From Cylicocyclus nassatus (Eukaryota; Nematoda; Chromadorea; Rhabditida; Strongylidae), in NCBI GenBank assembly GCA_958299035.1, contig CATQJL010000305.1, positions 31,323,733 to 31,387,732 on the forward strand: DNA of 64,000 nt. Direction: 5' to 3'. Below are positions 24,560 through 52,900 of the stretch, one piece after another. Both the position numbers and the translations under genes were made by a program. Position 1 is the first letter of the stretch, and every line of letters starts with the position of its first letter. The notes beneath the pieces are model-generated. The model was not told the DNA's origin and ran no database searches. It worked only from the letters and a program-made list of their open reading frames with translations.

Positions 24560-25672
24560 GATACCATCGTAACGCTCGTACGTCAATCTGCGTAAGTCTT
24601 TCATGCTTCATGTTCACATTTCCCTTTGTTGTAGTTACATAGTGAGATTGTGGTTACTTCGGTCAGTATACTTCGTGAGTTATAATCAAGTGAGCATCGG
24701 GAAGAGTAATCACAATCGACTATCATGTGCTCAGAATAACGTGGAATCTGCTCTTCCTGTGACTGCTTCGAAGTTGTGATGTGGCTTTCGACTTACAAAT
24801 CACCCTTGCATGCGTTTGCCACCACGCTCGTTGATGATGTTTCTCTTGCTTCATTTTGTTTCTATTGTGGTTGACTTTCACGAGGATCACTCAGTACTCG
24901 TCTTTCTATGATAAGATGAGCTTTGTGATCTGCAGCGATAGCACCACGCAAGTTTCTTGTTCCCCAATTCTCTTTGCATAACTTCGAATGTATCACGGAG
25001 AGACGGTTCCATTGCACGCATGCACTCGTACTTATGTATCATTTGTGCATGACTAGATGATGCTTCTTAATTACGAGGTTCACGAATATGAGTTCTATGT
25101 TGATGATTTCAGTGTGAATCGGAGACAGTTGGAGTCAAAGTTCCACATCAAAGACGTCATCTGTGTAGGTTTTCCTAGTGTTCTTGTATTTGTTGTTCGT
25201 AGTCATGCTGTGATTATGGTGACCTAATGCGCATTAGATTCCATATCTGCTTCAAACGTTAATTGGTCACAGTAATAGCAGTTGGCTATAATGATTGCGG
25301 AATGATATGGAATGGGGTAATGTTCTTGTTTTGAATGAACATCTACAGGAATGTGTTCTCATAAACAACTGAGCGGTTATGATGGACTGTCAACACCATT
25401 GAATTCTACGTCTGCAAGAATCGCATGATTTTGGTGATGTCATGTTTCTTTCCTCTATCTTTCTGTCTTTCTATCCTTGCGTGGCTGATTTTCACTAGAA
25501 TCACTCAGTACTCATCTTTTTTGTGATAAGATGAGCTTTGTGATTTGAAGTGATAGCGTCACGCATCTTTTCCATTGCATTTCCTTCTTCCTTTCACACT
25601 GCATGCATGGTATTGAGTATGATTCTTGCTTCTCTATCGGCTTTCCACTAACAAATGTCTCTGTGCAGCATT
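24560..25672. repeat. diverged tandem duplication up to the gap
   Basis: A block at about 24840-24955 and another at about 25480-25575 share the ordered words ATCACTCAGTACTC, GATAAGATGAGCTTTGTGAT and CACGCA at roughly 80 percent identity, so this stretch is an old ~0.6 kb tandem duplication. Three exon-like snippets, each ending near CGTCATCTGC/gtaagt (about 24087, 24592 and 25166), recur with the same spacing logic. 25241-25672 is also near-identical to 27249-27680. Confidence 0.6.
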
Positions 25673-26172
25673 NNNNNNNNNNNNNNNNNNNNNNNNNNNN
25701 NNNNNNNNNNNNNNNNNNNNNNNNNNNNNNNNNNNNNNNNNNNNNNNNNNNNNNNNNNNNNNNNNNNNNNNNNNNNNNNNNNNNNNNNNNNNNNNNNNNN
25801 NNNNNNNNNNNNNNNNNNNNNNNNNNNNNNNNNNNNNNNNNNNNNNNNNNNNNNNNNNNNNNNNNNNNNNNNNNNNNNNNNNNNNNNNNNNNNNNNNNNN
25901 NNNNNNNNNNNNNNNNNNNNNNNNNNNNNNNNNNNNNNNNNNNNNNNNNNNNNNNNNNNNNNNNNNNNNNNNNNNNNNNNNNNNNNNNNNNNNNNNNNNN
26001 NNNNNNNNNNNNNNNNNNNNNNNNNNNNNNNNNNNNNNNNNNNNNNNNNNNNNNNNNNNNNNNNNNNNNNNNNNNNNNNNNNNNNNNNNNNNNNNNNNNN
26101 NNNNNNNNNNNNNNNNNNNNNNNNNNNNNNNNNNNNNNNNNNNNNNNNNNNNNNNNNNNNNNNNNNNNNNNN
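25673..26172. other. assembly gap, 500 N
   Basis: Exactly 500 undetermined bases, a conventional fixed-size scaffold gap. Reading frames that span it are meaningless. Confidence 1.
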
Positions 26173-28392
26173 CGCTACGGTAGATGGGACGCATACGTGG
26201 TTGAGCTGGCAGGGGTCGCTCAAGAATTTTTTATCAATGACCTGAGTTACCATTTCTTAGCTTAGGCGCGTAATTGTGTTGGCGAAGTGCTGCTCACTCG
26301 AATAGTGGTCGTTTTGTTGAGAGCTTTGCATTTTACGCATCTGTATTGGTCGTATCCTTCCTTCTTTTTTGAGAACGCAAACACATGCGCCGTATCCGTA
26401 CCTGGAATTCGATACGACAAGACCTGTCCACCTTTGCGGCTTACCTGCGTTTCTCCTAGATAAAAGTTTTCGTTATTTATCCCCGAGGGTCCAGGTGCAT
26501 CGTAATTCTAGAAAAAACGAAAGTTTATCCGAAACCGACGTGATTTGCTTTAGAAATCTTAAGCTTTGTCATGAAGTCGTCAATTAGGAATGTTCGAGTT
26601 CGCACTAGGTGATCGAAATTATTTCCAAAATGTAGTAAGACTTTTTCATGGCCCAACCTCGTTAGAAACTCCGCCTTGTTGTTGAATTCCGGCTACAAAA
26701 AACTCATATGAAAAGGTTCCTTTGAAAATCTGTACCGTTACCACTTGGTGGGTCCGCAGGTGTGTATGTAAGTGCTCCGCTCAGCTTATCTACCTCGAGG
26801 AGAAGAGGTTGGCCTTCACTTGCACTCATTTCGCTGTAGAAATAATTTGAGATCAACTCAAACCTGAGTTAATGACTGAACGGTTAATGCTGCACAGAGA
26901 CATTTGTTAGTGGAAAGCCGATAGAGAAGCAAGAATCATACTCAATACCATGCATGCAGTGTGAAAGGAAGAAGGAAATGCAATGGAAAAGATGCGTGAC
27001 GCTATCACTTCAAATCACAAAGCTCATCTTATCACAAAAAAGATGAGTACTGAGTGATTCTAGTGAAAATCAGCCACGCAAGGATAGAAAGACAGAAAGA
27101 TAGAGGAAAGAAACATGACATCACCAAAATCATGCGATTCTTGCAGACGTAGAATTCAATGGTTGTTGACAGTCCATCATAACCGCTCAGTTGTTTATGA
27201 GAACACATTCCTGTAGATGTTCATTCAAAACAAGAACATTACCCCATTCCATATCTGCTTCAAACGTTAATTGGTCACAGTAATAGCAGTTGGCTATAAT
27301 GATTGCGGAATGATATGGAATGGGGGTAATGTTCTTGTTTTGAATGAACATCTACAGGAATGTGTTCTCATAAACAACTGAGCGGTTATGATGGACTGTC
27401 AACACCATTGAATTCTACGTCTGCAAGAATCGCATGATTTTGGTGATGTCATGTTTCTTTCCTCTATCTTTCTGTCTTCTATCCTTGCGTGGCTGATTTT
27501 CACTAGAATCACTCAGTACTCATCTTTTTTGTGATAAGATGAGCTTTGTGATTTGAAGTGATAGCGTCACGCATCTTTTCCATTGCATTTCCTTCTTCCT
27601 TTCACACTGCATGCATGGTATTGAGTATGATTCTTGCTTCTCTATCGGCTTTCCACTAACAAATGTCTCTGTGCAGCATTAACCGTTCAGTCATTAACTC
27701 AGGTTTGAGTTGATCTCAAATTATTTCTACAGCGAAATGAGTGCAAGTGAAGGCCAACCTCTTCTCCTCGAGGTAGATAAGCTGAGCGGAGCACTTACAT
27801 ACACACCTGCGGACCCACCAAGTGGTAACGGTACAGATTTTCAAAGGAACCTTTTCATATGAGTTTTTGTAGCCGGAATTCAACAACAAGGCGGAGTTTC
27901 TAACGAGGTTGGGCCATGAAAAAGTCTTACTACATTTTGGAAATAATTTCGATCACCTAGTGCGAACTCGAACATTCCTAATTGACGACTTCATGACAAA
28001 GCTTAAGATTTCTAAAGCAAATCACGTCGGTTTCGGATAAACTTTCGTTTTTTCTAGAATTACGATGCACCTGGACCCTCGGGGATAAATAACGAAAACT
28101 TTTATCTAGGAGAAACGCAGGTAAGCCGCAAAGGTGGACAGGTCTTGTCGTATCGAATTCCAGGTACGGATACGGCGCATGTGTTTGCGTTCTCAAAAAA
28201 GAAGGAAGGATACGACCAATACAGATGCGTAAAATGCAAAGCTCTCAACAAAACGACCACTATTCGAGTGAGCAGCACTTCGCCAACACAATTACGCGCC
28301 TAAGCTAAGAAATGGTAACTCAGGTCATTGATAAAAAATTCTTGAGCGACCCCTGCCAGCTCAACCACGTATGCGTCCCATCTACCGTAGCG
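26173..28392. repeat. ~1.08 kb-arm palindrome at MULE 5' end
   Basis: Left arm 26173-27255 is the near-identical inverse of 27312-28392 (only isolated one-base indels seen), with a 56-base spacer. The right arm holds the promoter-side DNA and first four exons of the MULE gene. The left arm runs into the N gap. Part of the right arm is present a third time, forward, at 25241-25672. The order forward, gap, reverse, forward suggests either head-to-head element copies or a misassembly. Confidence 0.9.
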
Positions 28393-30015
28393 AAGGATAT
28401 GGCGGCAAGAACATCTTACCAGGTGAACTGCGGCAGATCTACTAAAAGCCGAAGAAGGTGACTTCTCAGATGCTACAAGACCTTCGAAACGACCCGAAGG
28501 CTAGCAGCAGGCCTCCTCTCAGGCACTGGCTGAACACCATCAGACAGCTAGACCGGAACGCCACCCTAGGTGCAAACCAGCTTTGGTTTACTCTGTTAAT
28601 CAGGGTTATTCCTTATTGTAGAGGAAGACTTGCGAGCGCACGTGGTGGATGAATTTCGCGGAGAGGGGTATTCGCACAAAAAACGCGCAATCAGAAAGTA
28701 TGTGGGAAAAATACAGCTAACTACACGCAGTAGACAATGGAAATGTTGCAGGGCTTGCGGTAGCGGTCACACTGACGCCGTTACCATGGATAGCGTCCCC
28801 AGCTATCTAGCAAATTTGTCGGATGGAAGTCCATTCCTGCAAGTTAAAGAGCGCGGAATGCACGTCTACATATCTGATGCATCGGTCGAGGTGCCGTCAA
28901 TGCTTGCCAATCAAACCAGTTCGGACCCTTGATGTTTTAGAAAGCTTGCAAGAATGGGTTGTCGGTGCTGGTGGCGGACGGCGTACACAGCAAAGCCCCG
29001 CGATGCATCAAGAAAGGCTCGCAGCTCTATGTTATTCATGGAGTCTGCCGCGGCGGGTTCGACGTCCCCCTTCTCTACGCCATCATGGAGAAGAAAGATA
29101 AGCAGTCTTACGAAACAGTACTTTCACACCTGAAGACCCACCTGCTTAGGTTTGGTGCTGTCGATGGACTGCAAGTAGTCGTGGACTACGAAAAAGCTGC
29201 GATTGCCGCCATCCGCACCGTCTTTGAGAGGAGTGCAGTCCAGGGCTGTGCATTCCATCTTGCGCTAGCGTGGAACAGGCGGCGAAATGCGTTCGGGCTC
29301 ACTCGTTTTATATCTGGTAAAGACACCACAGCAGACGTCGTTGGCTGGTGGAACACCATCAAAGGCCTAGTTTTTTTGCCAAGGCGTCTGCATGGTGTTG
29401 TCCGCGCATTAAAGGAGCCGCCTGTTCCGCGCGAGCATCCAGCCTATGCGTGCTGTACTAATTTTTTGAATTACCTAGGTAAAACTTGGTATAAGGGTCC
29501 CCTGGCCAGCCTTTGGGATAAGTCCGGCATATACGATGTAAGGACCACAAACATAGCAGAAGCCTTTCACCGGTTAGAGGGTCATAAGGGAACTCCTTAC
29601 GGTCTGATATAAACCCTTTTAAGGCGACTGACCGTTTTGCTGGATGACTTCCCGGTGCTGTCGGAAGTCATCGACACGTTCCATACGTTAGAGGCGGAGT
29701 GCAGAGCTACGCTGAACTCCCTTGAGATGGTAAACATATTATCATTAAGTAGTACCAAACATCCATCCGCTCATCAGCTAAGTTCTTTTTTAGCACCCCG
29801 ACCACCAGAAGGAGATTAGCCACGAAGCCCTCCAACGACGAGATGAGATAGCTGCAGCGATGAGAACGTACGCGTCCCACAAGCCAACTAAACTAACTAA
29901 TTCACAACTCCCTTACAGGTTCGAAGATCAGTATAGGGCTCGTGGTGTGACCAGGGAAGAGGCCGAAACATATTGTAAAAATATGGCGAGATTTGTAACA
30001 GATAAAGCATTTTAA
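27737..30015 (+). pseudogene. MULE transposase gene, one in-frame stop
   Basis: Eight exons can be chained in phase: 27737-27772, 27873-28025, 28058-28267, 28324-28422, 28449-28569, 28622-28890, 28941-29729 and 29794-30015 (about 630 codons). Two Cys/His knuckles precede the catalytic core: YRCVKCKAL with LNHVC (exons 3-4), and QWKCCRACGSGHTD (exon 6). The Mutator-like DDE core is clear: VLVADGVHSKAP (first Asp), YVIHGVCRGGFDVPLLYAI, VVVDYEKAAIAAI (second Asp), GCAFHLALAW (C/H motif) and NIAEAFHR near the end. A TAA at 29610-29612 interrupts exon 7 but the same frame continues to the stop at 30013. Two short proposed introns (28026-28057 and 28423-28448) may instead be small indels. An acceptor (ctacag) sits just before the ATG. 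Confidence 0.8.
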
Positions 30016-33140: not shown

Positions 33141-33345
33141 GCATGCACTCATTTTCCTGTGAGACCGAAATTCGCAAAACTCTGCGTGAATGAAATTCAG
33201 CTTGGAGAATCCAAGGCATCGCTGGATCTGCGGATCACGGCAAATTTGGTGCACTGCAGTGTTGACAACATTCGCGCGTAACAAATGCACATTTTTATGC
33301 GCTCCAGCGTCATTTCTAATGCGCGCATGTTATCATAAACACATA

Positions 33346-33655
33346 GGGATCGGCCATACTAATCCTGATGATTCCTGCGACACCTGCGATTCCTGCGACT
33401 CCTGTGATTCCCCACAGTTCTATGATGCCCGCACGGTTTAGGCGCCGCTTAAACGAGCGCATTCTGCGTTTGTCATTTGGTGCCGCGTAAGGCAAAATCG
33501 AATGATTCAGTATATTGCTGTGAACGTGTTTTTTTCTAATTGTAGGCATATTCACACCTCGTAATTAATATGAAGATGTTTTAGAGGTGTTAACGAACGA
33601 TACACTTCTTTCAGATCTTGCGTTTCACCGAAAACAAGTGTTGCCTTTACTACAT
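33346..33655. repeat. Harbinger 310-bp TIR, copy 1
   Basis: Identical over 310 bp to 34252-34561 and 39149-39458, and the inverse of 44701-45010. Its first 65 bp carry four near-repeats of CCTGCGAYT (or CCTGTGATT), a plausible array of transposase binding sites. Confidence 0.92.
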
Positions 33656-33872
33656 TACTTATGTCGCCAGCGTGCATGCAGTGAATGTTGTTGAATGCTC
33701 AGCACCAGGTATGTCCAAATTTTGTGAATGCTGTGTTTTTTGTTTTCTCCGTCACAAGGAACTCTGTGGGAATGCATCTTGTTCTCATGGCGAAATGATG
33801 CAGGGTTGTGTTGACGGAACTCTTTTCGTGACTTTCCCGATTCCGCTATCTTTCATATGCCATCGTGTGTAG
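33618..33872 (+). CDS. 84-residue Cys-rich protein, Harbinger copy
   Basis: The ATG frame begins inside the TIR (MRFTENKCCLYY) and leaves it. It contains more than ten cysteines, including FCECCVFCF and CGNASCSHGE, and ends FICHRV at a TAG. It has no signal peptide. Splice-like sites inside (gtatgtcc at about 33712 and cacaag at about 33758) mean the true exon structure may differ. No family is recognised; standard Harbinger elements carry only a transposase and a Myb/MADF protein, so this would be a third frame. An identical copy lies at 39421-39675. Confidence 0.4.
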   Translation: MRFTENKCCLYYITYVASVHAVNVVECSAPGMSKFCECCVFCFLRHKELCGNASCSHGEMMQGCVDGTLFVTFPIPLSFICHRV

Positions 33873-34251
33873 AAACGCTTCTCATGCTTTTATTTACCTT
33901 TTACCTGTATAAACATGGAGGTGGGCTGGTATCCCAGTTAGCTCTTCTATTTTCAGCCTAGTAGCGAAGAACAACCGTGCGCAGAAGAGCATAATTGGAA
34001 GCGATGCTTGCTCAATGCCCAGGTAAGCTAGTCTTGAACTAATTGCGCATGTTCTTTGTGTTTCTGAGAGTATATGATTGAAATCAAGTTCAAAGCAAAT
34101 ATCTTTCTCCCGTCACCAAACTTTCATTTGCTCATGCTTGGCGGACTTACTGAGATCCAACGATGCTATTTTCTAGATCCACCGAGAACACTATAAACAT
34201 TAGGTCACTTCATTTTCAAGTTAAGGATGACTGAATTGTTGTGCAAAGTAT

Positions 34252-34561
34252 GGGATCGGCCATACTAATCCTGATGATTCCTGCGACACCTGCGATTCCT
34301 GCGACTCCTGTGATTCCCCACAGTTCTATGATGCCCGCACGGTTTAGGCGCCGCTTAAACGAGCGCATTCTGCGTTTGTCATTTGGTGCCGCGTAAGGCA
34401 AAATCGAATGATTCAGTATATTGCTGTGAACGTGTTTTTTTCTAATTGTAGGCATATTCACACCTCGTAATTAATATGAAGATGTTTTAGAGGTGTTAAC
34501 GAACGATACACTTCTTTCAGATCTTGCGTTTCACCGAAAACAAGTGTTGCCTTTACTACAT
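34252..34561. repeat. Harbinger 310-bp TIR, copy 2
   Basis: Left end of nested copy X2, preceded by TAT. On its minus strand a frame starting MNMPTIRKKHVHS runs through the TIR and translates the short repeats as GVAGIAGVAGI. The same frame exists in all four TIR copies and is more likely a by-product than a gene. Confidence 0.9.
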
Positions 34562-35090
34562 TTACACGTCGTGATTTGCATAACAATTTAAGTCGTGATG
34601 TTTGCTCTCTCTACATTTACAACTTTATGTCTGATTTGCATTACAACTTTGAGTCGAGATGTTAGCTCTCTTTACATACAACTTCATGTCGTGATTTGCA
34701 TTACAACTCTAAGTCGTGATGTTAGCTCTCTCTACATTTACAACTTCATGTCGTGATTTGCATTACAACTCTAAGTCGTGATGTTAGCTCTCTCTACATT
34801 TACAACTTCATGTCGTGATTTGCATTACAACTTTGAGTCGCGATGTTAGCTCTGCCTACATTTACAACTTCATGTCGTGATTTGCATTACAACTTTGAGT
34901 CGCGATGTTAGCTCTGCCTACATTTACAACTTCATGTCGTGATTTGCATTACAACTTTGAGTCGCGATGTTAGCTCTGCCTACATTTACAACTTCATGTC
35001 GTGATTTGCATTACAACTTTGAGTCGCGATGTTAGCTCTGCCTACATTTACAACTTCATGTCGTGATTTGCATTACAACTTTAAGTGATT
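34562..35090. repeat. 62-bp satellite in Harbinger X2
   Basis: Tandem 62-bp units (ACATTTACAACTTCATGTCG ... TTAGCTCTGCCT), the outer ones diverged, the inner ones nearly identical. Placed between the TIR and the MADF gene, as subterminal repeats often are. Each unit carries ATTTGCAT. Confidence 0.92.
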
Positions 35091-35122
35091 CCTTATCTCA
35101 AAGTTCTGTTTTGCAGGCAGGA

Positions 35123-36155
35123 ATGAACATCAGGGAACACATTGCGATTTTAGTGGAAAAGCATCCGAGCCTATGGTTGCCATCGCATGATGACTATCAC
35201 GATAAGGACGTACGCGCAGCCACATGGAATAAAATTGTCGATTTGTTGCTTGAACGTGGTATTGCGGCTGATTGTAAGTTGATAGATACTTTTTTCTTCA
35301 GCTTTATCAAGATTCGTTTCAGTAGATGATGTGAAAGCGAAATGGAAGGCCATGCGCAGTGGCTACATGAAGTGCCGTAAAGGAAAATCAGGACAAGCAG
35401 CCACCCGCACAGGAATTTTCAGATATCTGACATTTCTGGATCAAGCTGAAGTGGACGCGTACGTCTCTCCAACGCCACTGATTCTGAAGATGAAGTTTGC
35501 TGTATTTCAGGCCGCGACTTTCGAATTTAAATCTGAGCGATGAGGAGCACGTGAACGACGAAAACGGTAGAGCTCTTCTGCTGCTCTTCTTACACAATAC
35601 ATCGGAACTGTTTCAGATTTTCCATCGACTAGTTCTCAACACGAATCAACGAACCGAAAGAGACCCGCTGAAGAAATCGAGATACCGCTACTTGGACAGC
35701 CTTCTGAAAAGAGAAAGATTACCCCGAAAAGATCCCGAATGGTTGACATGTGTGATGAAGGTAAGATACTTCTCCACTCATTCTTCAACACTATGCTCGG
35801 TTTCAGATAGAGTTGCTCTGCGCGATGCGATAAACACAGTTAAAGAAATGGTGGAGGCGGTCAAAAAGAATGACAAATACGATACGTTTGGTGAGTTTCC
35901 AGGCACAACTGATCGAGCTATTCGGTGTTTTCAGGTGTTTTCGTGGCTCAAAATCTGAGAGATATGGGCGATGCGAAAGCGCAAGAGAAGATACATGTCA
36001 TAGTAACGTCTCTGGTGACAGAAGTTAGACATGTCATTACACCGGAGGAGTTTCGCCAGTGCGTGGAAGAGGCATATCGATCTAAGAGCAGTCTCCCAAT
36101 CCAAGTAGTCAAGCACTACGAAGACAATGTAAGAGAACCATCTCCCGAAGAATGA
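35123..36155 (+). CDS. MADF-BESS DNA-binding protein of Harbinger X2
   Basis: Exons 35123-35273, 35323-~35462, 35511-35566, 35617-35760, 35807-35890 and 35935-36155; an acceptor (ttttgcag, ending 35116) lies just before the ATG. The first two exons form a MADF domain: ILVEKHPSLW, HDDYHDKDVRAATWNKIV, DVKAKWKAMRSGYMKC and FRYLTFLDQAEV. A basic linker (NRKRPAEE, KRKITPKRSR) resembles a nuclear signal. The end, FVAQNLRDMGDAKAQEKIHV, is BESS-like. Harbinger elements pair the nuclease with such a protein, which carries the transposase into the nucleus and onto the ends. The junction after exon 2 (35463-35510) does not keep phase with any normal-size intron, so one small indel is likely. Identical inverse copy at 43045-44077. 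Confidence 0.78.
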
Positions 36156-36850
36156 TTTTGAGTGCATTTTCTTTGTTTACTTTTCATTTTCGTTATCAGT
36201 AGTTTGTTTACTTTTCATTTTTTTTGTTACCAGTACCATTAGCAGTTCCACACTTTGAGAAGCATTCGATTGACTCTTTAGCAAGATTCTTAGTTCTTGG
36301 ATCTCGGTGAAGTACGGTTGTTACGGTTGATACGATACGGTTTGATACGATACGGTTCACATTTTTTCAAAGATTTTGTACAGTTTTGGATTTCAAGAAG
36401 AAGTAAAAGTTTATCGTGATTATACACATCAGTTCGTATAAATGGCACGTGAGTATCTGTTGAGAACTATTTAGGAACGAAAACACTGTAGGCAAGCAGA
36501 TGTATTTACAGACCGAAGTTCGGCTTCTTACAAGATATACTCGAAAACACTTACTGATGATGGGGAAAAGCGGCAATATAAAAGACAGCTAAGGCGGAAG
36601 TAAGGCTTTCTCCCAGGGTTAAGACAATACCCAAGTCTCATCTTTCATGACCGTATAAATCAACGTAGTATTGTGTTATAAGATCTCTCGCAGCACCGCC
36701 TGTTGGTAGGAGATCCGTGTTCCTCAGTGGATGGTACGCGTTTTGTGCAGGTCTAAATCTCTCCACTTCTGCCAAGCTGTCCTGTCTTCGGGGAAGCATG
36801 TTGTGAAGGATCTATAGCCATTGCTCAATAACTCAATGTCAGGAATCGGT

Positions 36851-38130
36851 TCAATAGTCAACTGGACTAACCATGAGGGAAACAACCAGCCGCTTTGCTC
36901 GCTCTGGAGTCAAGGTCATCCGCGTCATCAAAATTTGGAAACGCTGGGCCAGCAAACCAAAGGTGGATTCTATCATATGCCGAGCTCTAAATGCTATTCC
37001 TCCACATCCTCATGTCAGATAGGTGATAAGTTACCCGCTTAATTGTCGGTTGAATCGCCTTCTATCTCCTGTAGTCGTTTCGGGCTCTCTATACGGTCGG
37101 ATAAATCGCGGCCCTTGAGCGAAGCCGCCGTCCACCAGGAAATGATATTGGACAGGGCCCACTCTCCCAAGCCCTCTCGTGGGAGGAAAAACGTCATCGT
37201 GACGTTCCAGCCATCTCTGAATTCCCGAATCAAACTCCGTATTTTCTCATTAGCGAACCAAACCTTGATAGCGGAATTCCGAAACACGCCAGCATCACCA
37301 CGGCGACCAGGAGCTCCAACGTCGTACGCCATAAAGCGATAATCACAATCGCATATTGCCAGGAGAATGATCGAGTGGTAATGCTTGTAGTTCCAGTAAT
37401 ACTTCCAGAGCGGGCGGGCTTCTAAACACACACTGTCGTTGTATACATCTTGCATAAGCACTGAGAACCTGGATATTTATGTGCTTGCCGTCCATGAACC
37501 CCACTGCCCTGGGGTAGTCAAACCGTGCCTGTGTCTTTCTGGCTACTTCCTCTAGTCTCGCACGTGTTAGAGGTGGAAAAGCAACATTATGCAGAACTGA
37601 ATCACGATTGGTGGTAATGTATATAGCTAGCGTTCTGCTTATACCCCTTATGATGGCTTCTGCCACTTCCTCTACCACATTCGATACTGTTGTTTTCCCC
37701 ATTCCTATGTCCAAAGCATAAGCGGTGAAAGTCCTCCTCTGCGTTACAAATCTGAAGGGACAATGCATGTTATTAGCGGTTTAGTTCACGTTATCAGTTC
37801 CCCAAGCTTTCACCTGAGGTAGATCATCAGTCTGTGACGGCCGGTTACTGGACCAAGATGGGTACGAGGATGCTCTAACCCACTTCCTATTCTTTCGTAA
37901 AGGTCCTCAAATTCATCAGGCAAGAGCTTGATGAATTCGAGAAAACCCTCAGGCCTCCTCGTAACCAGGTATTCGTCAAAAATGCGGAAGCGAGTTTCAA
38001 TGAATCGAATGTGCTCTTGCCGCACATACTGCCGCCTCTGCCGCGGAGATATCTGGCCTGCAGTAGGCTCGCTCATAGCGTACAAGAACTCCAAACTTCC
38101 CAAAAGATTCGATAATGATTCGTAGCTCAT
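36851..38130 (-). pseudogene. Harbinger DDE transposase, X2 copy
   Basis: Exact inverse of 41070-42349; see that entry for domains and defects. The first exon starts MSYESLSNLLGSLEF at 38130. It carries the same two frame breaks as the X1 copy, so they predate the second insertion or come from the assembly. Confidence 0.8.
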
Positions 38131-39148
38131 TCTGCAACATACAATGTAATTGAAGGATGACTATGCTACACTACAAAGTTACGAACGCGATGCATGCACA
38201 TGTCACTGCAGTTCGCCCCCTCCTCCGACATCAAGGTATTCTCCGAAATAAAGCTCAAATACACTGGGAGCAAATTATCTATTCACATTTCGTAACAGCT
38301 GAAAAGGAGTCTGCTAAAACCCTAGAAGAGATGGCGCAGACAAAAAGACAGGTTCTCTGATGAAAAAGATCCTAGGTTAGTCAAAGCTGTAATTGTATTC
38401 CTTCCATTTATGGCCGAAGAACTAACACTGTTGAAGCAAGGCGAGGTGTGATGTTAGCAAAAGCGAAAAAAATGTTTCCTCACATGATACAGACAAAAAA
38501 AGTAGCAAAATCTTCATTCAGAATTTCATCATCGCAAACTCTTTCGACTATTCTGAACAAAAGTAATGCCGCCATGAGAATATCTACATCATTCATCACA
38601 TTGTTATCTTTATTCAATCAATCCAAAAATCACTGTTGAAGAAACGGGGTTTGCTTATCAAGCAAAAGGTCTACGGTGGCAAAGAACCACCACGAGTTAC
38701 GGCGACTTCCCCTCGATACTTCGGGCAGTCAGATAGTTGACAGCAAAAATGTTCAGTGCTAAAGGAACTCGCGTTGATAAATGATAAGATAGTAGATTGC
38801 AGTACAAACTTACATTGTCATAAGTAGAGAATCATTTTGGATTGTCCCATGCTAAGTTGCTTGTTATGCGACCACAGATTTCTCCGTCCTTGAACATAAA
38901 CCCACTCTGTCTTTCTAATACGAACCTATAAGTGAATACTACACGGCTTGCTTATGAGTATCGAGTAGGAAATATATCCAAGAAACGTCACAAGAATAAA
39001 AAAGCAAGTAACATACCAGCACACTACTCCTTGAAGTGATCCAGCCAGCTATTTGTCTGAAGCAAGTGAGAATAATGAGGCGATTCCCTAAATATTAAAT
39101 CTCTTATTCTGAGTACTAGCCACACTACAGCAGGTGTAAGAACAGATA
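38131..39148. other. inner arm of Harbinger X2, non-coding
   Basis: Mirrors 40052-41069. It contains only short frames (for example 38448-38639, Lys/Ser-rich) with no recognisable domain. It ends GAACAGATA, the inner edge of the palindrome arm. Confidence 0.6.
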
Positions 39149-39458
39149 GGGATCGGCCATACTAATCCTGATGATTCCTGCGACACCTGCGATTCCTGCG
39201 ACTCCTGTGATTCCCCACAGTTCTATGATGCCCGCACGGTTTAGGCGCCGCTTAAACGAGCGCATTCTGCGTTTGTCATTTGGTGCCGCGTAAGGCAAAA
39301 TCGAATGATTCAGTATATTGCTGTGAACGTGTTTTTTTCTAATTGTAGGCATATTCACACCTCGTAATTAATATGAAGATGTTTTAGAGGTGTTAACGAA
39401 CGATACACTTCTTTCAGATCTTGCGTTTCACCGAAAACAAGTGTTGCCTTTACTACAT
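39149..39458. repeat. Harbinger 310-bp TIR, copy 3
   Basis: Start of the 903-bp loop between the palindrome arms, preceded by ATA. In a simple nested insertion this TIR would close X2 in the inverse direction at 40051. Confidence 0.9.
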
Positions 39459-39675
39459 TACTTATGTCGCCAGCGTGCATGCAGTGAATGTTGTTGAATG
39501 CTCAGCACCAGGTATGTCCAAATTTTGTGAATGCTGTGTTTTTTGTTTTCTCCGTCACAAGGAACTCTGTGGGAATGCATCTTGTTCTCATGGCGAAATG
39601 ATGCAGGGTTGTGTTGACGGAACTCTTTTCGTGACTTTCCCGATTCCGCTATCTTTCATATGCCATCGTGTGTAG
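39421..39675 (+). CDS. 84-residue Cys-rich protein, second copy
   Basis: Identical in sequence and length to 33618-33872. Kept open in both copies, but both are nearly identical as DNA, so this says nothing about selection. Confidence 0.4.
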   Translation: MRFTENKCCLYYITYVASVHAVNVVECSAPGMSKFCECCVFCFLRHKELCGNASCSHGEMMQGCVDGTLFVTFPIPLSFICHRV

Positions 39676-41069
39676 AAACGCTTCTCATGCTTTTATTTAC
39701 CTTTTACCTGTATAAACATGGAGGTGGGCTGGTATCCCAGTTAGCTCTTCTATTTTCAGCCTAGTAGCGAAGAACAACCGTGCGCAGAAGAGCATAATTG
39801 GAAGCGATGCTTGCTCAATGCCCAGGTAAGCTAGTCTTGAACTAATTGCGCATGTTCTTTGTGTTTCTGAGAGTATATGATTGAAATCAAGTTCAAAGCA
39901 AATATCTTTCTCCCGTCACCAAACTTTCATTTGCTCATGCTTGGCGGACTTACTGAGATCCAACGATGCTATTTTCTAGATCCACCGAGAACACTATAAA
40001 CATTAGGTCACTTCATTTTCAAGTTAAGGATGACTGAATTGTTGTGCAAAGTATCTGTTCTTACACCTGCTGTAGTGTGGCTAGTACTCAGAATAAGAGA
40101 TTTAATATTTAGGGAATCGCCTCATTATTCTCACTTGCTTCAGACAAATAGCTGGCTGGATCACTTCAAGGAGTAGTGTGCTGGTATGTTACTTGCTTTT
40201 TTATTCTTGTGACGTTTCTTGGATATATTTCCTACTCGATACTCATAAGCAAGCCGTGTAGTATTCACTTATAGGTTCGTATTAGAAAGACAGAGTGGGT
40301 TTATGTTCAAGGACGGAGAAATCTGTGGTCGCATAACAAGCAACTTAGCATGGGACAATCCAAAATGATTCTCTACTTATGACAATGTAAGTTTGTACTG
40401 CAATCTACTATCTTATCATTTATCAACGCGAGTTCCTTTAGCACTGAACATTTTTGCTGTCAACTATCTGACTGCCCGAAGTATCGAGGGGAAGTCGCCG
40501 TAACTCGTGGTGGTTCTTTGCCACCGTAGACCTTTTGCTTGATAAGCAAACCCCGTTTCTTCAACAGTGATTTTTGGATTGATTGAATAAAGATAACAAT
40601 GTGATGAATGATGTAGATATTCTCATGGCGGCATTACTTTTGTTCAGAATAGTCGAAAGAGTTTGCGATGATGAAATTCTGAATGAAGATTTTGCTACTT
40701 TTTTTGTCTGTATCATGTGAGGAAACATTTTTTTCGCTTTTGCTAACATCACACCTCGCCTTGCTTCAACAGTGTTAGTTCTTCGGCCATAAATGGAAGG
40801 AATACAATTACAGCTTTGACTAACCTAGGATCTTTTTCATCAGAGAACCTGTCTTTTTGTCTGCGCCATCTCTTCTAGGGTTTTAGCAGACTCCTTTTCA
40901 GCTGTTACGAAATGTGAATAGATAATTTGCTCCCAGTGTATTTGAGCTTTATTTCGGAGAATACCTTGATGTCGGAGGAGGGGGCGAACTGCAGTGACAT
41001 GTGCATGCATCGCGTTCGTAACTTTGTAGTGTAGCATAGTCATCCTTCAATTACATTGTATGTTGCAGA

Positions 41070-42349
41070 ATGAGCTACGAATCATTATCGAATCTTTTGG
41101 GAAGTTTGGAGTTCTTGTACGCTATGAGCGAGCCTACTGCAGGCCAGATATCTCCGCGGCAGAGGCGGCAGTATGTGCGGCAAGAGCACATTCGATTCAT
41201 TGAAACTCGCTTCCGCATTTTTGACGAATACCTGGTTACGAGGAGGCCTGAGGGTTTTCTCGAATTCATCAAGCTCTTGCCTGATGAATTTGAGGACCTT
41301 TACGAAAGAATAGGAAGTGGGTTAGAGCATCCTCGTACCCATCTTGGTCCAGTAACCGGCCGTCACAGACTGATGATCTACCTCAGGTGAAAGCTTGGGG
41401 AACTGATAACGTGAACTAAACCGCTAATAACATGCATTGTCCCTTCAGATTTGTAACGCAGAGGAGGACTTTCACCGCTTATGCTTTGGACATAGGAATG
41501 GGGAAAACAACAGTATCGAATGTGGTAGAGGAAGTGGCAGAAGCCATCATAAGGGGTATAAGCAGAACGCTAGCTATATACATTACCACCAATCGTGATT
41601 CAGTTCTGCATAATGTTGCTTTTCCACCTCTAACACGTGCGAGACTAGAGGAAGTAGCCAGAAAGACACAGGCACGGTTTGACTACCCCAGGGCAGTGGG
41701 GTTCATGGACGGCAAGCACATAAATATCCAGGTTCTCAGTGCTTATGCAAGATGTATACAACGACAGTGTGTGTTTAGAAGCCCGCCCGCTCTGGAAGTA
41801 TTACTGGAACTACAAGCATTACCACTCGATCATTCTCCTGGCAATATGCGATTGTGATTATCGCTTTATGGCGTACGACGTTGGAGCTCCTGGTCGCCGT
41901 GGTGATGCTGGCGTGTTTCGGAATTCCGCTATCAAGGTTTGGTTCGCTAATGAGAAAATACGGAGTTTGATTCGGGAATTCAGAGATGGCTGGAACGTCA
42001 CGATGACGTTTTTCCTCCCACGAGAGGGCTTGGGAGAGTGGGCCCTGTCCAATATCATTTCCTGGTGGACGGCGGCTTCGCTCAAGGGCCGCGATTTATC
42101 CGACCGTATAGAGAGCCCGAAACGACTACAGGAGATAGAAGGCGATTCAACCGACAATTAAGCGGGTAACTTATCACCTATCTGACATGAGGATGTGGAG
42201 GAATAGCATTTAGAGCTCGGCATATGATAGAATCCACCTTTGGTTTGCTGGCCCAGCGTTTCCAAATTTTGATGACGCGGATGACCTTGACTCCAGAGCG
42301 AGCAAAGCGGCTGGTTGTTTCCCTCATGGTTAGTCCAGTTGACTATTGA
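41070..42349 (+). pseudogene. Harbinger DDE transposase, X1 copy
   Basis: Exon 1 41070-41386 (MSYESLSNLLGSLEF...), exon 2 41449-41733, then 41778-42165 and 42214-42349, with GT-AG introns. The DDE nuclease fold is recognisable: GFMDGKHINIQ (first Asp), KPARSGS and YWNYKHYHSIILLAICD, YRFMAYDVGAPGRRGDAGVF (second Asp), YHFLVDGGF, FIRPYREP, FNRQLSGARHMIESTFGLL (catalytic Glu). This is the standard PIF/Harbinger order. Two frame breaks, near 41804 (ATTAC) and near 42010 (a TTTTT run), split the third exon, so this copy cannot make a full protein unless these are sequence errors. The enzyme cuts and joins the transposon ends in the nucleus with its MADF partner, encoded convergently at 43045-44077. 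Confidence 0.85.
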
Positions 42350-43044
42350 ACCGATTCCTGACATTGAGTTATTGAGCAATGGCTATAGATCCTTCACAAC
42401 ATGCTTCCCCGAAGACAGGACAGCTTGGCAGAAGTGGAGAGATTTAGACCTGCACAAAACGCGTACCATCCACTGAGGAACACGGATCTCCTACCAACAG
42501 GCGGTGCTGCGAGAGATCTTATAACACAATACTACGTTGATTTATACGGTCATGAAAGATGAGACTTGGGTATTGTCTTAACCCTGGGAGAAAGCCTTAC
42601 TTCCGCCTTAGCTGTCTTTTATATTGCCGCTTTTCCCCATCATCAGTAAGTGTTTTCGAGTATATCTTGTAAGAAGCCGAACTTCGGTCTGTAAATACAT
42701 CTGCTTGCCTACAGTGTTTTCGTTCCTAAATAGTTCTCAACAGATACTCACGTGCCATTTATACGAACTGATGTGTATAATCACGATAAACTTTTACTTC
42801 TTCTTGAAATCCAAAACTGTACAAAATCTTTGAAAAAATGTGAACCGTATCGTATCAAACCGTATCGTATCAACCGTAACAACCGTACTTCACCGAGATC
42901 CAAGAACTAAGAATCTTGCTAAAGAGTCAATCGAATGCTTCTCAAAGTGTGGAACTGCTAATGGTACTGGTAACAAAAAAAATGAAAAGTAAACAAACTA
43001 CTGATAACGAAAATGAAAAGTAAACAAAGAAAATGCACTCAAAA

Positions 43045-44077
43045 TCATTCTTCGGGAGATGGTTCTCTTACATTGTCTTCGTAGTGCTTGACTACTTGGA
43101 TTGGGAGACTGCTCTTAGATCGATATGCCTCTTCCACGCACTGGCGAAACTCCTCCGGTGTAATGACATGTCTAACTTCTGTCACCAGAGACGTTACTAT
43201 GACATGTATCTTCTCTTGCGCTTTCGCATCGCCCATATCTCTCAGATTTTGAGCCACGAAAACACCTGAAAACACCGAATAGCTCGATCAGTTGTGCCTG
43301 GAAACTCACCAAACGTATCGTATTTGTCATTCTTTTTGACCGCCTCCACCATTTCTTTAACTGTGTTTATCGCATCGCGCAGAGCAACTCTATCTGAAAC
43401 CGAGCATAGTGTTGAAGAATGAGTGGAGAAGTATCTTACCTTCATCACACATGTCAACCATTCGGGATCTTTTCGGGGTAATCTTTCTCTTTTCAGAAGG
43501 CTGTCCAAGTAGCGGTATCTCGATTTCTTCAGCGGGTCTCTTTCGGTTCGTTGATTCGTGTTGAGAACTAGTCGATGGAAAATCTGAAACAGTTCCGATG
43601 TATTGTGTAAGAAGAGCAGCAGAAGAGCTCTACCGTTTTCGTCGTTCACGTGCTCCTCATCGCTCAGATTTAAATTCGAAAGTCGCGGCCTGAAATACAG
43701 CAAACTTCATCTTCAGAATCAGTGGCGTTGGAGAGACGTACGCGTCCACTTCAGCTTGATCCAGAAATGTCAGATATCTGAAAATTCCTGTGCGGGTGGC
43801 TGCTTGTCCTGATTTTCCTTTACGGCACTTCATGTAGCCACTGCGCATGGCCTTCCATTTCGCTTTCACATCATCTACTGAAACGAATCTTGATAAAGCT
43901 GAAGAAAAAAGTATCTATCAACTTACAATCAGCCGCAATACCACGTTCAAGCAACAAATCGACAATTTTATTCCATGTGGCTGCGCGTACGTCCTTATCG
44001 TGATAGTCATCATGCGATGGCAACCATAGGCTCGGATGCTTTTCCACTAAAATCGCAATGTGTTCCCTGATGTTCAT
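43045..44077 (-). CDS. MADF-BESS DNA-binding protein of Harbinger X1
   Basis: Exact inverse of 35123-36155, same six-exon structure and same unclear junction after exon 2. It lies tail-to-tail with the transposase of the same element, with about 700 bp between stop codons that includes TACGATACGGTT-type short repeats. Confidence 0.78.
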
Positions 44078-44109
44078 TCCTGCCTGCAAAACAGAACTTT
44101 GAGATAAGG

Positions 44110-44700
44110 AATCACTTAAAGTTGTAATGCAAATCACGACATGAAGTTGTAAATGTAGGCAGAGCTAACATCGCGACTCAAAGTTGTAATGCAAATCACG
44201 ACATGAAGTTGTAAATGTAGGCAGAGCTAACATCGCGACTCAAAGTTGTAATGCAAATCACGACATGAAGTTGTAAATGTAGGCAGAGCTAACATCGCGA
44301 CTCAAAGTTGTAATGCAAATCACGACATGAAGTTGTAAATGTAGGCAGAGCTAACATCGCGACTCAAAGTTGTAATGCAAATCACGACATGAAGTTGTAA
44401 ATGTAGGCAGAGCTAACATCGCGACTCAAAGTTGTAATGCAAATCACGACATGAAGTTGTAAATGTAGAGAGAGCTAACATCACGACTTAGAGTTGTAAT
44501 GCAAATCACGACATGAAGTTGTAAATGTAGTGAGAGCTAACATCACGACTTAGAGTTGTAATGCAAATCACGACATGAAGTTGTATGTAAAGAGAGCTAA
44601 CATCTCGACTCAAAGTTGTAATGCAAATCAGACATAAAGTTGTAAATGTAGAGAGAGCAAACATCACGACTTAAATTGTTATGCAAATCACGACGTGTAA
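44110..44700. repeat. 62-bp satellite in Harbinger X1
   Basis: Inverse of the array at 34562-35090 but one 62-bp unit longer. This is the only length difference found between the two ~4.9 kb arms. Confidence 0.92.
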
Positions 44701-45010
44701 ATGTAGTAAAGGCAACACTTGTTTTCGGTGAAACGCAAGATCTGAAAGAAGTGTATCGTTCGTTAACACCTCTAAAACATCTTCATATTAATTACGAGGT
44801 GTGAATATGCCTACAATTAGAAAAAAACACGTTCACAGCAATATACTGAATCATTCGATTTTGCCTTACGCGGCACCAAATGACAAACGCAGAATGCGCT
44901 CGTTTAAGCGGCGCCTAAACCGTGCGGGCATCATAGAACTGTGGGGAATCACAGGAGTCGCAGGAATCGCAGGTGTCGCAGGAATCATCAGGATTAGTAT
45001 GGCCGATCCC
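44701..45010. repeat. Harbinger 310-bp TIR, copy 4 (inverse)
   Basis: Right end of X1, ends GGCCGATCCC and is followed by the ATA duplication. Confidence 0.92.
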
Positions 45011-45013
45011 ATA

Positions 45014-46377
45014 GATGAATTAACCGGCCATATTTACTGAGCTATATGCTAGAGTCGGTTCCAATCGGTATCACAAACTCTGGCAAAAAAGCTAAGCAGT
45101 TGCATTACAGATGCCCGCCAAGCAGTGGCGTTTTACCAGAAACGGGTCAAAGAAAATGAGCAGACGAGACGAAAGTAGTAGACAGGCGTAGTCCTACCAC
45201 GGCAAGGCACAAGTCCACTAGATTTTCCGCTCAATATACGTCAATGTCAACTACGTACTCCCTTTCGCATGGGAACTACGCATGCGCAACGCAAGCAATG
45301 CACGCGGATCCAGTTGCGATGCTCGTTGCGCTTAAGGAAAAGAAGTACGTAATTTACACGGACTAAATGTGTTGGCGCCGAGTTTTGCAGCCAAATTTGC
45401 GCGTGAATAAATGGCCAAGCCAATGATGTCGGCAGTTTGCGCGCGCAGCTGACTGGCATCGGAGGCGTAGGTGTTGTTCACGCGCAAATTTGGCCGCAAA
45501 ATCGCGACGTCGCAACCACACACATTGAGCGGAAATTATGCCAGACTGTGATCGTGAACATTAGGCACAGTAGCGATAAGAGCACGCAACACGCCGTCTT
45601 GATTGGGCTCGGAGAATTTATCGAACGCGTCTATTTAGTACAAGAACCTCAAGTGTGCTCAACAGCATATGACAGTGTGTACAAATCCGAGAAGCTAGTT
45701 GTGAAGCTGAGAAGAAACTATTCATACCGCAGTGAATTCCCCCTCCTCCACGTTAGAGTCACGCGTCAGAACTTGTAATTATAATAGTTCCACCCCCGCT
45801 ACAAGAGCAGCGGCATCTCGCACAGCAAACTTGAGGGTGATGTCATAGTTGTTCAAGATCCGAACTGGATCCGCACCTGATCCAAATGTGATCGCGATAT
45901 TCGCCACATGGTCGCACTCCTCAACGCAAGCGACAGTAACAACCATCACAGACAAACTGAACACGACATACGCCAAGTACCCGGTCCGGACCCCGAGATA
46001 TGAATATGGCAACAATGGCACTACCCTGACTCCTGCACCCTTCTTTGATCGTTGGTATATTTCATCATGGTTAGTCGATGTATCGCAACCAAAGCATTCT
46101 CATAACTACTGAAACTTGTTTTTGTTTTTTCTTGTTTTTTAGGAAAAAATCCCGTCCCACTCTTCTGTCCTCGTTCAACACGACACATACGACCTCGGCA
46201 CTGGCTCTTTCGAGATAGCAATACTGACTTTTTTCGTAAGTCTATGAGTTTTCGTTCTCTTTTTCTTGTTTTCTTGATTTCCGCGGTTCTGAGAAGTTAT
46301 TTTGGAAAGTTGAGTCTATGTATCCCATCACGCTATGCGTGTGGGTGGAATTACTTCATGGGCACATACATACATAC
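45014..46377. other. intergenic; repeat fragments, no supported gene
   Basis: A single end of the GTCAANNACGT MITE family lies near 45245-45290. An inverted repeat occurs at 45383-45501 (separate entry). A frame on the minus strand at 45779-46021 reads like protein (ECDHVANIAITFGSGADPV), as does the opposite strand, so neither is accepted. Confidence 0.4.
45383..45501. repeat. 25-bp-arm CpG-rich inverted repeat
   Basis: Arms 45383-45407 and 45477-45501 (TTTTGC.GCCAAATTTGCG) differ at one position and enclose about 69 bases. Probably the core of a foldback MITE. Confidence 0.7.
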
Positions 46378-49923: not shown

Positions 49924-52900
49924 TTATGACAATGGATCTAGGGCAATTCGAACAAGAAGGGAGGCAGAGTCATCAGGTGTGTGTTGGCTGCCAGTATTCA
50001 AGCGTATCTGGGAGTATCCTGAAAACAGAAATTTACTAGAATTCGTTGTGAATGGTAGAAGGGAAAAAAGCTTTGCTGGTATTAGCACTCAACCATTGAC
50101 GTGATTTATCAAACTCATCGGGCAATGATGAGGTGATGAGCAGGCGGCGCAGTACTGTCATAACGCGCGCTCGATTGGGCGTCTTCTAGATTCCCGATTG
50201 GGCGTTAGCGGTTGACTTTCAAAATCAGGCATCTCTCGACCAATCGAGTTCTTCGCTTATAATGGTAAAACAGCTCCCAATCATCTCTTGCAATCGAGAG
50301 TTCTTGATTACCGCCCAGCAATTCAGTTCCAAATTTTACTATAATTTCGTAAAAAAGGTTATTTGACTTGTGATGATATTCTCTGTTCAGTAAGCAGTAT
50401 TCAGCATCGCAGTACCTCTCCTCCTATTTGATAGGGTTACGGTAGCTGTACGGTAAAGGGTCTAAGTCTCAGATGCTAAAACTTTGCAAAAAATCGTTAA
50501 AGGAATATGCATCCTCTCACGAAGTTTGTAGCAAAAATTCTAGGTCGCTGACTCCTCATAGCGATTTTTTCCAAGCTGAATCTTTATGCACAACGCAGAA
50601 AAACTCAATAATCTGTGATGAGTACCTCTTCTCACGCTGGTAACAGGAATTGAAAATTCTCCAATAAAATCATGCTGTGTGGTAGAATCATAATCTTTGA
50701 CGCAGAAACGTAAAATCGCCAGTTCTGGGAAACATAGATCCTTTTTGAAAGACTGGTTCCACACCGGATTGAACCCTGAAAAAGGATGATATGGAATATA
50801 GGTCGTCCCAAAAGTTCGTTCGTACCATAAAAGATTCTCAAATTGTGCTTTTTCAACCGATATGCTTGCTTTTATTTTAGTCACAAGGGCAGAACATGTT
50901 CACTATAACACAGCGGCGGTCCCGGGATTTCGGACCAGAGGGGGGCGGCAAAAATTTTTTTTCAAGTGAAGGTGCGTGGCTAACGCCACGCACTCTGGAA
51001 AAATTTTTGAGGTGCTTCTCAAAATTGTTGCGGGGTCCCTAACGCCCCGGAAAAAAATTTTGCATAAGGCTAATTTGAATTTTTAGGAAATTTTAAAAAT
51101 TATGTAAATTGTTTACAAAATTAAACAAGTCATTTGCACATTTTTATAACTCATCTAAGTAAATTTCAAAATTTCGCGAGCCGTTCTCGGGGGGGGGGGG
51201 GGTGGGGGGAGGGGGCGCCCCCTCTCGGTCCGCCACTGCTATAACAGTATCTCACTGTTAGCTTTTTTAGCATACATTGCACAGAGAGAAGCGGTAGAGA
51301 AAATTACTAATACTCTGATTTTTCTATCTCTGGTAGTAAAAAATCAGAAACTTACAGTAAAAATTGGGGCATTTGGTTTTATAGGTTCTCTTAGCTGCTT
51401 TTTCCTATTTGGGGAGAATTTGTGCTGATTAAAAATGTCTGCGAATAGTTGCGATTTTCGAAGAGATGTCAAAAAATCAAATTTGCTGTTTTTGCTGCTC
51501 TCGAAATCATGATTTTTGATGGGGGAGCTCAATCAGTACGAACTGTGTTCAGTTAGTAAGAGCAGATAATAAAACCTATAATACCACTTCCTCCGATTTT
51601 TATACAAGTACTAGACTTCTAACCAAATACAAAAAAAAAATCAAAACTTGGATAATCTGTGTTCAACAGAAAGTCGCTAAGATATTAGGTTGTCCCGAAA
51701 GTTTTGTCGGTTTTTTCAAATCGCTATAAAACCACGCACAATAAAGACCTGAATGAGTTTCAACATGCAATCGATGCAGCTTTTCCTTCTCTTTCTTGAT
51801 TACATCTTTTTGCCATAATCCTGCATTCTTTTTCTGATAACTGCTAAAATTTTTCACCCGTCATTTTTATCTGCTCAAAGTTTGGCTAATTTTCACAAAT
51901 TCCATTTCAAAGTTTTCGAAACGCTTAAGTATGTAGCAGATAAAGCAATTCTCGGACTACATGGTAATGTTTATCGATTCTTCTAATCTTCTGTTTTTAG
52001 CGTAAAAAAATCATTTTTTCCAATGTCTCGATTTTTGGCAAAGTCATGAAACGCACAACTGCAGCAAAAACATGGAAGCTTTTAGAATTTTTGCGAATTG
52101 GTTTTTGTTTGTTATTAAACATTATTTATGCAACCTATCCAAGTTTGATCTGCTTTGAAAAATCACTTTTTGGAGTTTTCGGTACTTTCACGTGTTAAAC
52201 GTAATCAAAATGCCTTGGTTTTTCTCAAATAAATTATTATTACGGACTTACTAAATGCGCCTCATGTAATCCAAAATATGCACGATGTAGCCAAAGGTTT
52301 GCTCTACGTAACAGATACCAGCGCTCTTTAGAAATATCGAAATAAAAATTTTCAAAAATTCAGGAAGGGTTTGACAATACTGTAAAGCTGCTCGAAAAGC
52401 CGTGATGATAACACCGCAAAGACAGAGTAGATCAGAGAGCAAATATAGCTGTAAGAAAGAGGATAAAAATACAAATTGAATGATACTTGAACCGTCCATG
52501 GATTTCTGCTCTGTGAGTTTTAGTGAGCGATGAAATAAACCGACAAAACTTTCGGGACAACCTAATATTTTCATGAAGAGCATGATTGGTTCCTTGAAAC
52601 AAAAATAAAAGCAACCAAATTGATTGGAAAATTCAAAAGTTATGATTTTTGAATATGACGCGGTAGAATTGCTGTTGCAGTGTCCTTACGGTGAAGACAA
52701 CATTTGCACGAGTAAAACGAGGAAGAAAGTAAAGGTCCGCGCTCCATAATCATTTAGGCCAAAATGCTATCGACACTGCAGGGACACTACAACAACGCAG
52801 ATTTGCTAGATCAAACCTCTGAACTTACCGTTATCCTTTATGTGTGTTGTTTTAGCCTTCCATGTGTCTTTGTCCACTCCGAAAATTTGAATTGTGACGT

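What the first reader, a model, noticed from the sequence alone, without database searches (positions are those of the whole stretch)
33343..45013. Harbinger transposon inserted into its own copy, making a giant palindrome
The 11.7 kb block resolves fully as one ~5.86 kb element (X1, ends GGGATCGG/CCGATCCC, ATA duplication outside) with a second ~5.80 kb copy (X2) inserted in opposite orientation at an internal TAT, which is duplicated at 34249-34251 and 40052-40054. Self-insertion in opposite orientation produces ~4.9 kb inverted arms. If transcribed, such DNA yields long double-stranded RNA, so this could be a natural silencing trigger for the whole family.
Basis: partly seen in the sequence, partly recalled or inferred. 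Interest (0 to 1): 0.8.

Follow-up and report, generated by a model that had tools for sequence, protein, structure and literature searches.

The report
Jumping gene that integrated into itself
In a horse-parasite roundworm, a cut-and-paste transposon of the Harbinger kind appears to have attacked its own DNA, leaving one complete copy beside a 4.9 kb mirror-image piece; this looks like a young natural example of a known kind of accident, and whether it silences the transposon family is untested.

Summary
The 11.7 kb block is real: a young Harbinger composite in Cylicocyclus nassatus with outer ATA repeats and ~4.9 kb inverted arms. The order is ATA-A-TAT-rc(B)-A-B-ATA, where A+B is the 5,862 bp element (A = 903 bp). 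Two histories give the observed order and junctions: one-step transposition joining ends of two sister copies to a TAT inside the element, or self-insertion followed by a flip of the 903 bp loop. Outside a 62-bp array the two copies differ at 0 of 5,260 aligned sites. They share 9 substitutions and 2 one-base indels absent from the three other copies aligned; one is a transposase frameshift. The nearest of those differs at 27 sites. The second copy thus most likely came from this same insertion. I favour sister-assisted self-transposition. The silencing idea resembles maize Mu killer but has no data here. New variant of a known kind.

The parts
33343..33345 (.). left outer target-site duplication ATA
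   Evidence: sequence; matches 45011-45013
33346..34248 (+). A1: left 903 bp of the element (one end GGGATCGG), cut off by the event
   Evidence: identical to 39149-40051, 903/903
34249..34251 (+). TAT: one copy of the duplicated internal target (also the reverse complement of the outer ATA)
34252..39148 (-). rc(B): inverted copy of the right 4.9 kb of the element, beginning with an element end and ending at the internal target (...AACAGATA)
39146..39148 (-). ATA: second copy of the internal target, inverted, directly before the second left end
39149..45010 (+). complete 5,862 bp element A2+B2 with uninterrupted A|B junction at 40051/40052
   Evidence: same junction in L009 and L011
39149..40051 (+). 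A2: loop between the inverted arms; orientation opposite to that expected from simple self-insertion
40052..45010 (+). B2: right arm
45011..45013 (.). right outer target-site duplication ATA
39149..39459 (+). 311 bp terminal inverted repeat, perfect match to 44700-45010; further copies at 33346-33656 and 34252-34562
44114..44694 (+). 62-bp tandem array, 9.4 units; 8.4 units in the left arm at 34568-35086
41070..42562 (+). Harbinger-type transposase gene (DDE_Tnp_4), exon model with short introns; one-base frameshift in a conserved motif relative to other copies
36638..38130 (-). mirror copy of the transposase gene with the same frameshift
43045..44077 (-). second gene, MADF/Myb-SANT-like DNA-binding protein; extent read from open frames, exons not modelled in full (mirror copy at 35123-36155, +)

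Best explanation
A single Harbinger element sat at a host ATA site. During or after its replication, transposase paired the right end of the element on one sister chromatid with the left end of the copy on the other sister, and joined both ends to a TAT 903 bp inside the first copy. The B part was thereby inverted (A-TAT-rc(B)-ATA) and tied to the complete sister copy (A-B). This is a chromosomal, sister-assisted form of autointegration. The 3-bp staggered cut gives the TAT at 34249 and the inverted ATA at 39146. Shown: the arrangement, the two element-end junctions, the 3-bp target duplication and the shared private mutations. Inferred: use of sister chromatids, transposase supplied by another copy (this one is frameshifted), and a reciprocal empty chromatid. 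Any effect as an RNA hairpin is a possible later consequence, not shown.
For: The model gives the order, orientation and junction letters of 33243-45113 in one step (the pieces were cut from the window itself, so the test is of arrangement only). Both new junctions join an exact element end to the two sides of the same internal 3-bp target. The two copies differ at 0 of 5,260 columns outside the array and share 9 substitutions and 2 one-base indels absent from L009 and L010; L011 agrees with those two at 9 of 9 substitutions and at both indels. The nearest other copy aligned, L009, differs at 27 columns; a donor that distant would give zero differences with probability about e^-27. The family makes 3-bp duplications elsewhere: 8 of 9 and 19 of 24 two-ended copies, with ATA in 1 of those 27. 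[quoted passage not shown] Maize sister chromatid transposition gives flanking inverted duplications (PMC3744419, passages).
Against: The final letters are the same as those of self-insertion followed by a loop flip, so sequence alone cannot separate them. The internal TAT equals the reverse complement of the outer ATA, and the left contexts AACAGATA/AACACATA match at 7 of 8; of 185 ATA sites in the element (both strands) only 3, this one included, have so similar a context. Transposition does not predict this. In the passages seen, alternative transposition is described for P elements and Ac/Ds and suggested for Tam3, not for Harbinger. No read data were available.
Confidence: 0.52

Rival explanations
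1. Classical self-insertion of a whole element (excised from the sister) in opposite orientation at the internal TAT, followed by inversion of the 903 bp loop through homologous recombination between the two 4.9 kb arms.
For: Gives exactly the same string as the favoured model. Near-identical 4.9 kb inverted arms around a short loop are a good recombination substrate (general knowledge). Self-insertion in inverted orientation is known from maize double Ds (recalled; not found in the library).
Against: Needs two events within a short time: 0 substitutions outside the array, at most about 105,000 generations at a recalled worm mutation rate (gene conversion would make this bound too young).
Confidence: 0.25
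2. Real self-insertion, but the loop orientation in the assembly is wrong because reads did not span a 4.9 kb arm.
For: The unflipped order has the same local junctions, so shorter reads cannot orient the loop. The window holds a 500-N gap at 25673-26172. I found no paper giving the read type (listings).
Against: The arms differ by one 62-bp unit, so they were not filled from one consensus. The block lies about 7 kb inside a gap-free stretch that fills the window from 26173 to 64000.
Confidence: 0.1
3. An excised element autointegrated into an inversion circle (A-TAT-rcB-ATA), and the circle recombined through its 903 bp A part into the remaining sister copy.
For: By reasoning it gives the same letters. 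Inversion circles are described for Sleeping Beauty and piggyBac (PMC3952818, passages).
Against: Needs an extra recombination step; no circle evidence. I did not write this model out in a script.
Confidence: 0.07
4. Microhomology-mediated template switching during replication or break repair, not transposase.
For: TAT/ATA microhomology at both junctions and the 7-of-8 match AACAGATA/AACACATA. An older copy of the family has an inverted duplication whose breakpoints are not at element ends (L029/L030).
Against: Both landings are exact element ends, and both departures are the two sides of one 3-bp target. This must be coincidence here but is required by transposition.
Confidence: 0.05

Closest known systems
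Turmoil-1 (C. elegans, PIF/Harbinger)
   Same: Nematode Harbinger of about 5 kb with long terminal inverted repeats (5,024 bp with 760 bp repeats; PMC2572040, part 1 of 2 of the text seen)
   Different: Differs in length and repeat length as printed; not compared by sequence here. Its Table 1 lists a + and a - fragment sharing 3 bp at chr I 5980183-5980185, which may be a similar composite but was not examined
[quoted passage not shown]
   Same: Element ends attack the element's own DNA; inversion products with target duplications (PMC3952818, passages)
   Different: Those products are excised circles; this one is chromosomal and includes a complete second copy
Sister chromatid transposition / hybrid element insertion (Ac/Ds, P element)
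   Same: Ends of two copies used together; flanking inverted duplications (PMC3744419, passages)
   Different: Target lies inside the element itself; Harbinger superfamily; nematode
Maize double Ds
   Same: One element inserted into an identical one in opposite orientation (recalled)
   Different: The loop orientation here is not that of a simple nested pair
Mu killer (maize)
   Same: Inverted duplication of part of a transposase gene at a rearranged element (PMC3440606, abstract and passages)
   Different: Mu killer is reported to silence MuDR; nothing of the kind is tested here

Membership tests
PIF/Harbinger superfamily | DDE_Tnp_4 (Harbinger/HARBI1-type) transposase | tested here: met
   Open frame 41724-42161 E=6.3e-07; close relative P0002 from the same species (93 per cent identity) E=7.6e-26
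PIF/Harbinger superfamily | second Myb/SANT- or MADF-like DNA-binding protein | tested here: met
   MADF_DNA_bdg E=1.5e-06 for open frame 43871-44164
PIF/Harbinger superfamily | 3-bp target duplication leaning to TWA | tested here: met
   8 of 9 and 19 of 24 two-ended copies; TTA/TAA in 8 of the 19; the window's own ATA is uncommon (1 of 27)
PIF/Harbinger superfamily | terminal inverted repeats | tested here: met
   311 bp, no mismatch
Autonomous element | intact transposase reading frame | tested here: not met
   One-base frameshift shared by both copies, absent from L009, L010 and L011; another splice pattern keeps the frame open but is untested
Simple self-insertion (double-Ds type) | complete inner copy with both ends, in opposite orientation | tested here: not met
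   Inner stretch 34252-40051 lacks a right end; the model differs from the window. A later flip could have produced this
Alternative (sister-chromatid) transposition | two ends from different copies joined to one target with target duplication | tested here: inconclusive
   Junctions at 34251/34252 and 39148/39149 with TAT/ATA fit it, but self-insertion plus flip gives the same letters
Alternative (sister-chromatid) transposition | reciprocal product (chromatid without the element) | not tested
   Empty-site pattern search was sent three times but not answered
Mu killer-type silencing locus | transcripts and small RNAs that silence the family | not testable with these tools
   No RNA data

The most novel reading that the evidence does not exclude
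A Harbinger element in an animal underwent chromosomal, sister-assisted autointegration in one step, and the young locus that it left makes the steps of such events readable from private mutations and acts as a natural hairpin source against its own family.
Probability: 0.15. Interest if true: 0.65.

Novelty: new variant of a known kind. Interest (0 to 1): 0.42.

Why it matters
Self-insertion has been put forward as one hypothesis for why long Harbinger elements reinsert poorly (PMC10288884, passages), but the library searches made here listed no paper that I recognised as dissecting a natural chromosomal product of it in an animal. Here the orientation of the loop and 11 shared private changes allow the history to be read: the second copy most likely came from the same insertion. 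The locus is also a testable candidate for hairpin-triggered silencing in a parasitic worm.

Tried and rejected
Same-orientation nested insertion: does not fit. Insertion of an independent copy from elsewhere: the nearest other copy aligned has 27 differences at 5,260 columns and lacks the shared changes. A donor absent from the assembly, copies not aligned (L012, L013/L029, L031 and the shorter pieces), or gene conversion between copies could still mimic the result.

The idea that ATA/TAT is impossible as a target for this family was dropped, because 1 of 27 other duplicated sites is ATA (L040). A candidate second sister-transposition locus (L044, flanks inverted) was dropped: the small element there sits in the middle of a roughly 500 bp palindrome, which explains the inverted flanks.

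Exact scans of genome contigs and viral contigs with the 20-base end found nothing (the tool says that the window's own genome may be left out there). No solved structure matched P0002 by sequence. The paper searches (all ten allowed) listed no paper that I recognised as describing this locus or this worm's genome assembly; two searches returned no paper at all. Listings only were seen except for the papers named in this report.

No structure prediction and no RNA folding was run, since no claim depended on them.

Full report
Setting. The window is stretch C305:31323733-31387732 of a 514.7 Mb assembly in 369 contigs. The transposase search (39 proteins listed) returned Cylicocyclus nassatus proteins whose contig lengths (83,539,078; 93,436,948; 89,099,805; 107,728,306) equal those of four of the six contigs from which I fetched stretches. 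P0001 matches both copies in the window piece by piece. The host is therefore this strongylid nematode.

Anatomy. The element is 5,862 bp (39149-45010), with 311 bp perfect terminal inverted repeats and a 62-bp tandem array. It has a Harbinger-type transposase gene rightward and a MADF-type gene leftward. The transposase exon model uses introns of about 40-62 bp (one acceptor was corrected). Relative to other copies the transposase has a one-base frameshift in a conserved motif, shared by both copies. Copies without this frameshift exist elsewhere in the genome (L009, L010, L011).

Arrangement. The order is ATA | A1 33346-34248 | TAT | rc(B) 34252-39148 | A2 39149-40051 | B2 40052-45010 | ATA. 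A1 and A2 are identical and point the same way. The arms differ by one 62-bp unit and one substitution, both in the array. Simple self-insertion in opposite orientation predicts the reverse complement of A in the middle, which is not what is present. One search wrote out four arrangements from pieces of the window. Two fit 11,871 bases without a difference: self-insertion plus flip, and one-step two-copy transposition into the element's own TAT. These two yield the same string, and because the pieces come from the window the test concerns order, orientation and junction letters only. The two simple nested-insertion models did not fit.

Where the second copy came from. I aligned the two window copies with L009, L010 and L011, two full-length and one long interrupted relative, chosen from the 67 matches; other partial copies fetched (such as L012, L013/L029 and L031) were left out. 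Counting columns outside the array in which both window copies, L009 and L010 have a letter, the window copies differ at 0 of 5,260; L009 differs from them at 27 and L010 at 120. Nine substitutions and two one-base indels are shared by both window copies and absent from L009 and L010; L011 agrees with those two at 9 of 9 substitutions and at both indels. The second copy thus carries this insertion's own marks. The simplest source is the sister chromatid. Gene conversion or an unassembled or unaligned donor remain possible.

Target sites. In one search, 8 of 9 two-ended copies show a 3-bp duplication (L024 and L025 have flanks that are reverse complements and may be one duplicated insertion). 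In one search, 19 of 24 do, of which 8 are TTA or TAA and 1 is ATA. The failures are L019 and L037, L039, L041, L044 and L048. The 24 were picked as pairs of facing ends from the places listed, which shows only the first part of 316+329 end matches, so they are not a random sample. ATA is allowed but uncommon. The agreement of inner and outer triplets, and of AACAGATA with AACACATA, stays unexplained (3 of 185 ATA sites, this one included, have so similar a context).

Mechanism. In the favoured reading, the right end of one sister copy and the left end of the other are joined to one TAT inside the first copy. Everything up to the junctions is shown; the sister step is inferred. [quoted passage not shown] Self-insertion was raised as a hypothesis for the poor reinsertion of long Harbinger elements, with its role still to be confirmed (PMC10288884, passages).

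Silencing. A transcript crossing both arms could fold into a hairpin of about 4.9 kb, and Mu killer is a known inverted transposase duplication that silences its family (PMC3440606, abstract and passages). That paper, however, reports short antisense transcripts in effective silencers and presents them as a new model in place of the long hairpin, which it leaves as a possible contributor. In the window I sought no promoter, and no transcript data were on hand. The idea is open.

Age. Zero substitutions in 5,260 columns bound the divergence at 5.7e-4 (95 per cent). That is about 105,000 generations at a C. elegans rate recalled from memory. Gene conversion would make the locus look younger than it is.

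Verdict. The parse needed correction, and that correction changes the mechanism. It is a new variant of a known kind of transposon accident.

Noticed in passing
window 25238-28392: A 2.2 kb near-perfect palindrome (98.4 per cent) begins at the first base after the 500-N gap (25673-26172), and the stretch before the gap repeats part of it. It may be a foldback repeat that stopped the assembly.
   Followed up: partly
L029 and L030 (C305:69.386-69.392 Mb): An older copy of the same family holds a separate inverted duplication with arms of about 1,532 bp at 99.4 per cent identity; its breakpoints are not at element ends.
   Followed up: partly
window 41070-42562; protein P0001: The public protein most likely predicted from this copy bypasses the frameshift by a splice choice that drops the stretch around the motif that I take, from recall, to hold the first catalytic aspartate, so the annotation hides a broken gene.
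   Followed up: partly
whole genome: 316 forward and 329 reverse matches to the 20-base element end (up to 3 mismatches; 0 and 0 in the reversed control) point to a large family; many of the listed pairs lie about 200 bp apart, as expected of short non-autonomous relatives.
   Followed up: partly
L044 (C112:2114325-2114822): A short relative sits in the centre of a roughly 500 bp palindrome, so its flanks are inverted copies of each other.
   Followed up: partly
L024 and L025 (C1:102.25 and 102.36 Mb): Two short copies about 105 kb apart have flanks that are reverse complements of each other, suggesting an inverted segmental duplication.
   Followed up: no
window 28941-29612: Open frame with a MULE transposase domain, another transposon family.
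   Followed up: no
window 50540-53141, - strand: Two open frames with C2 domains of a probable host gene, perhaps a phospholipase C (that name is recalled), pointing toward the composite from about 5.5 kb away.
   Followed up: no
PMC2572040 Table 1: Two Turmoil-1 fragments of opposite orientation on C. elegans chromosome I share 3 bp (5980183-5980185), possibly a similar composite.
   Followed up: no
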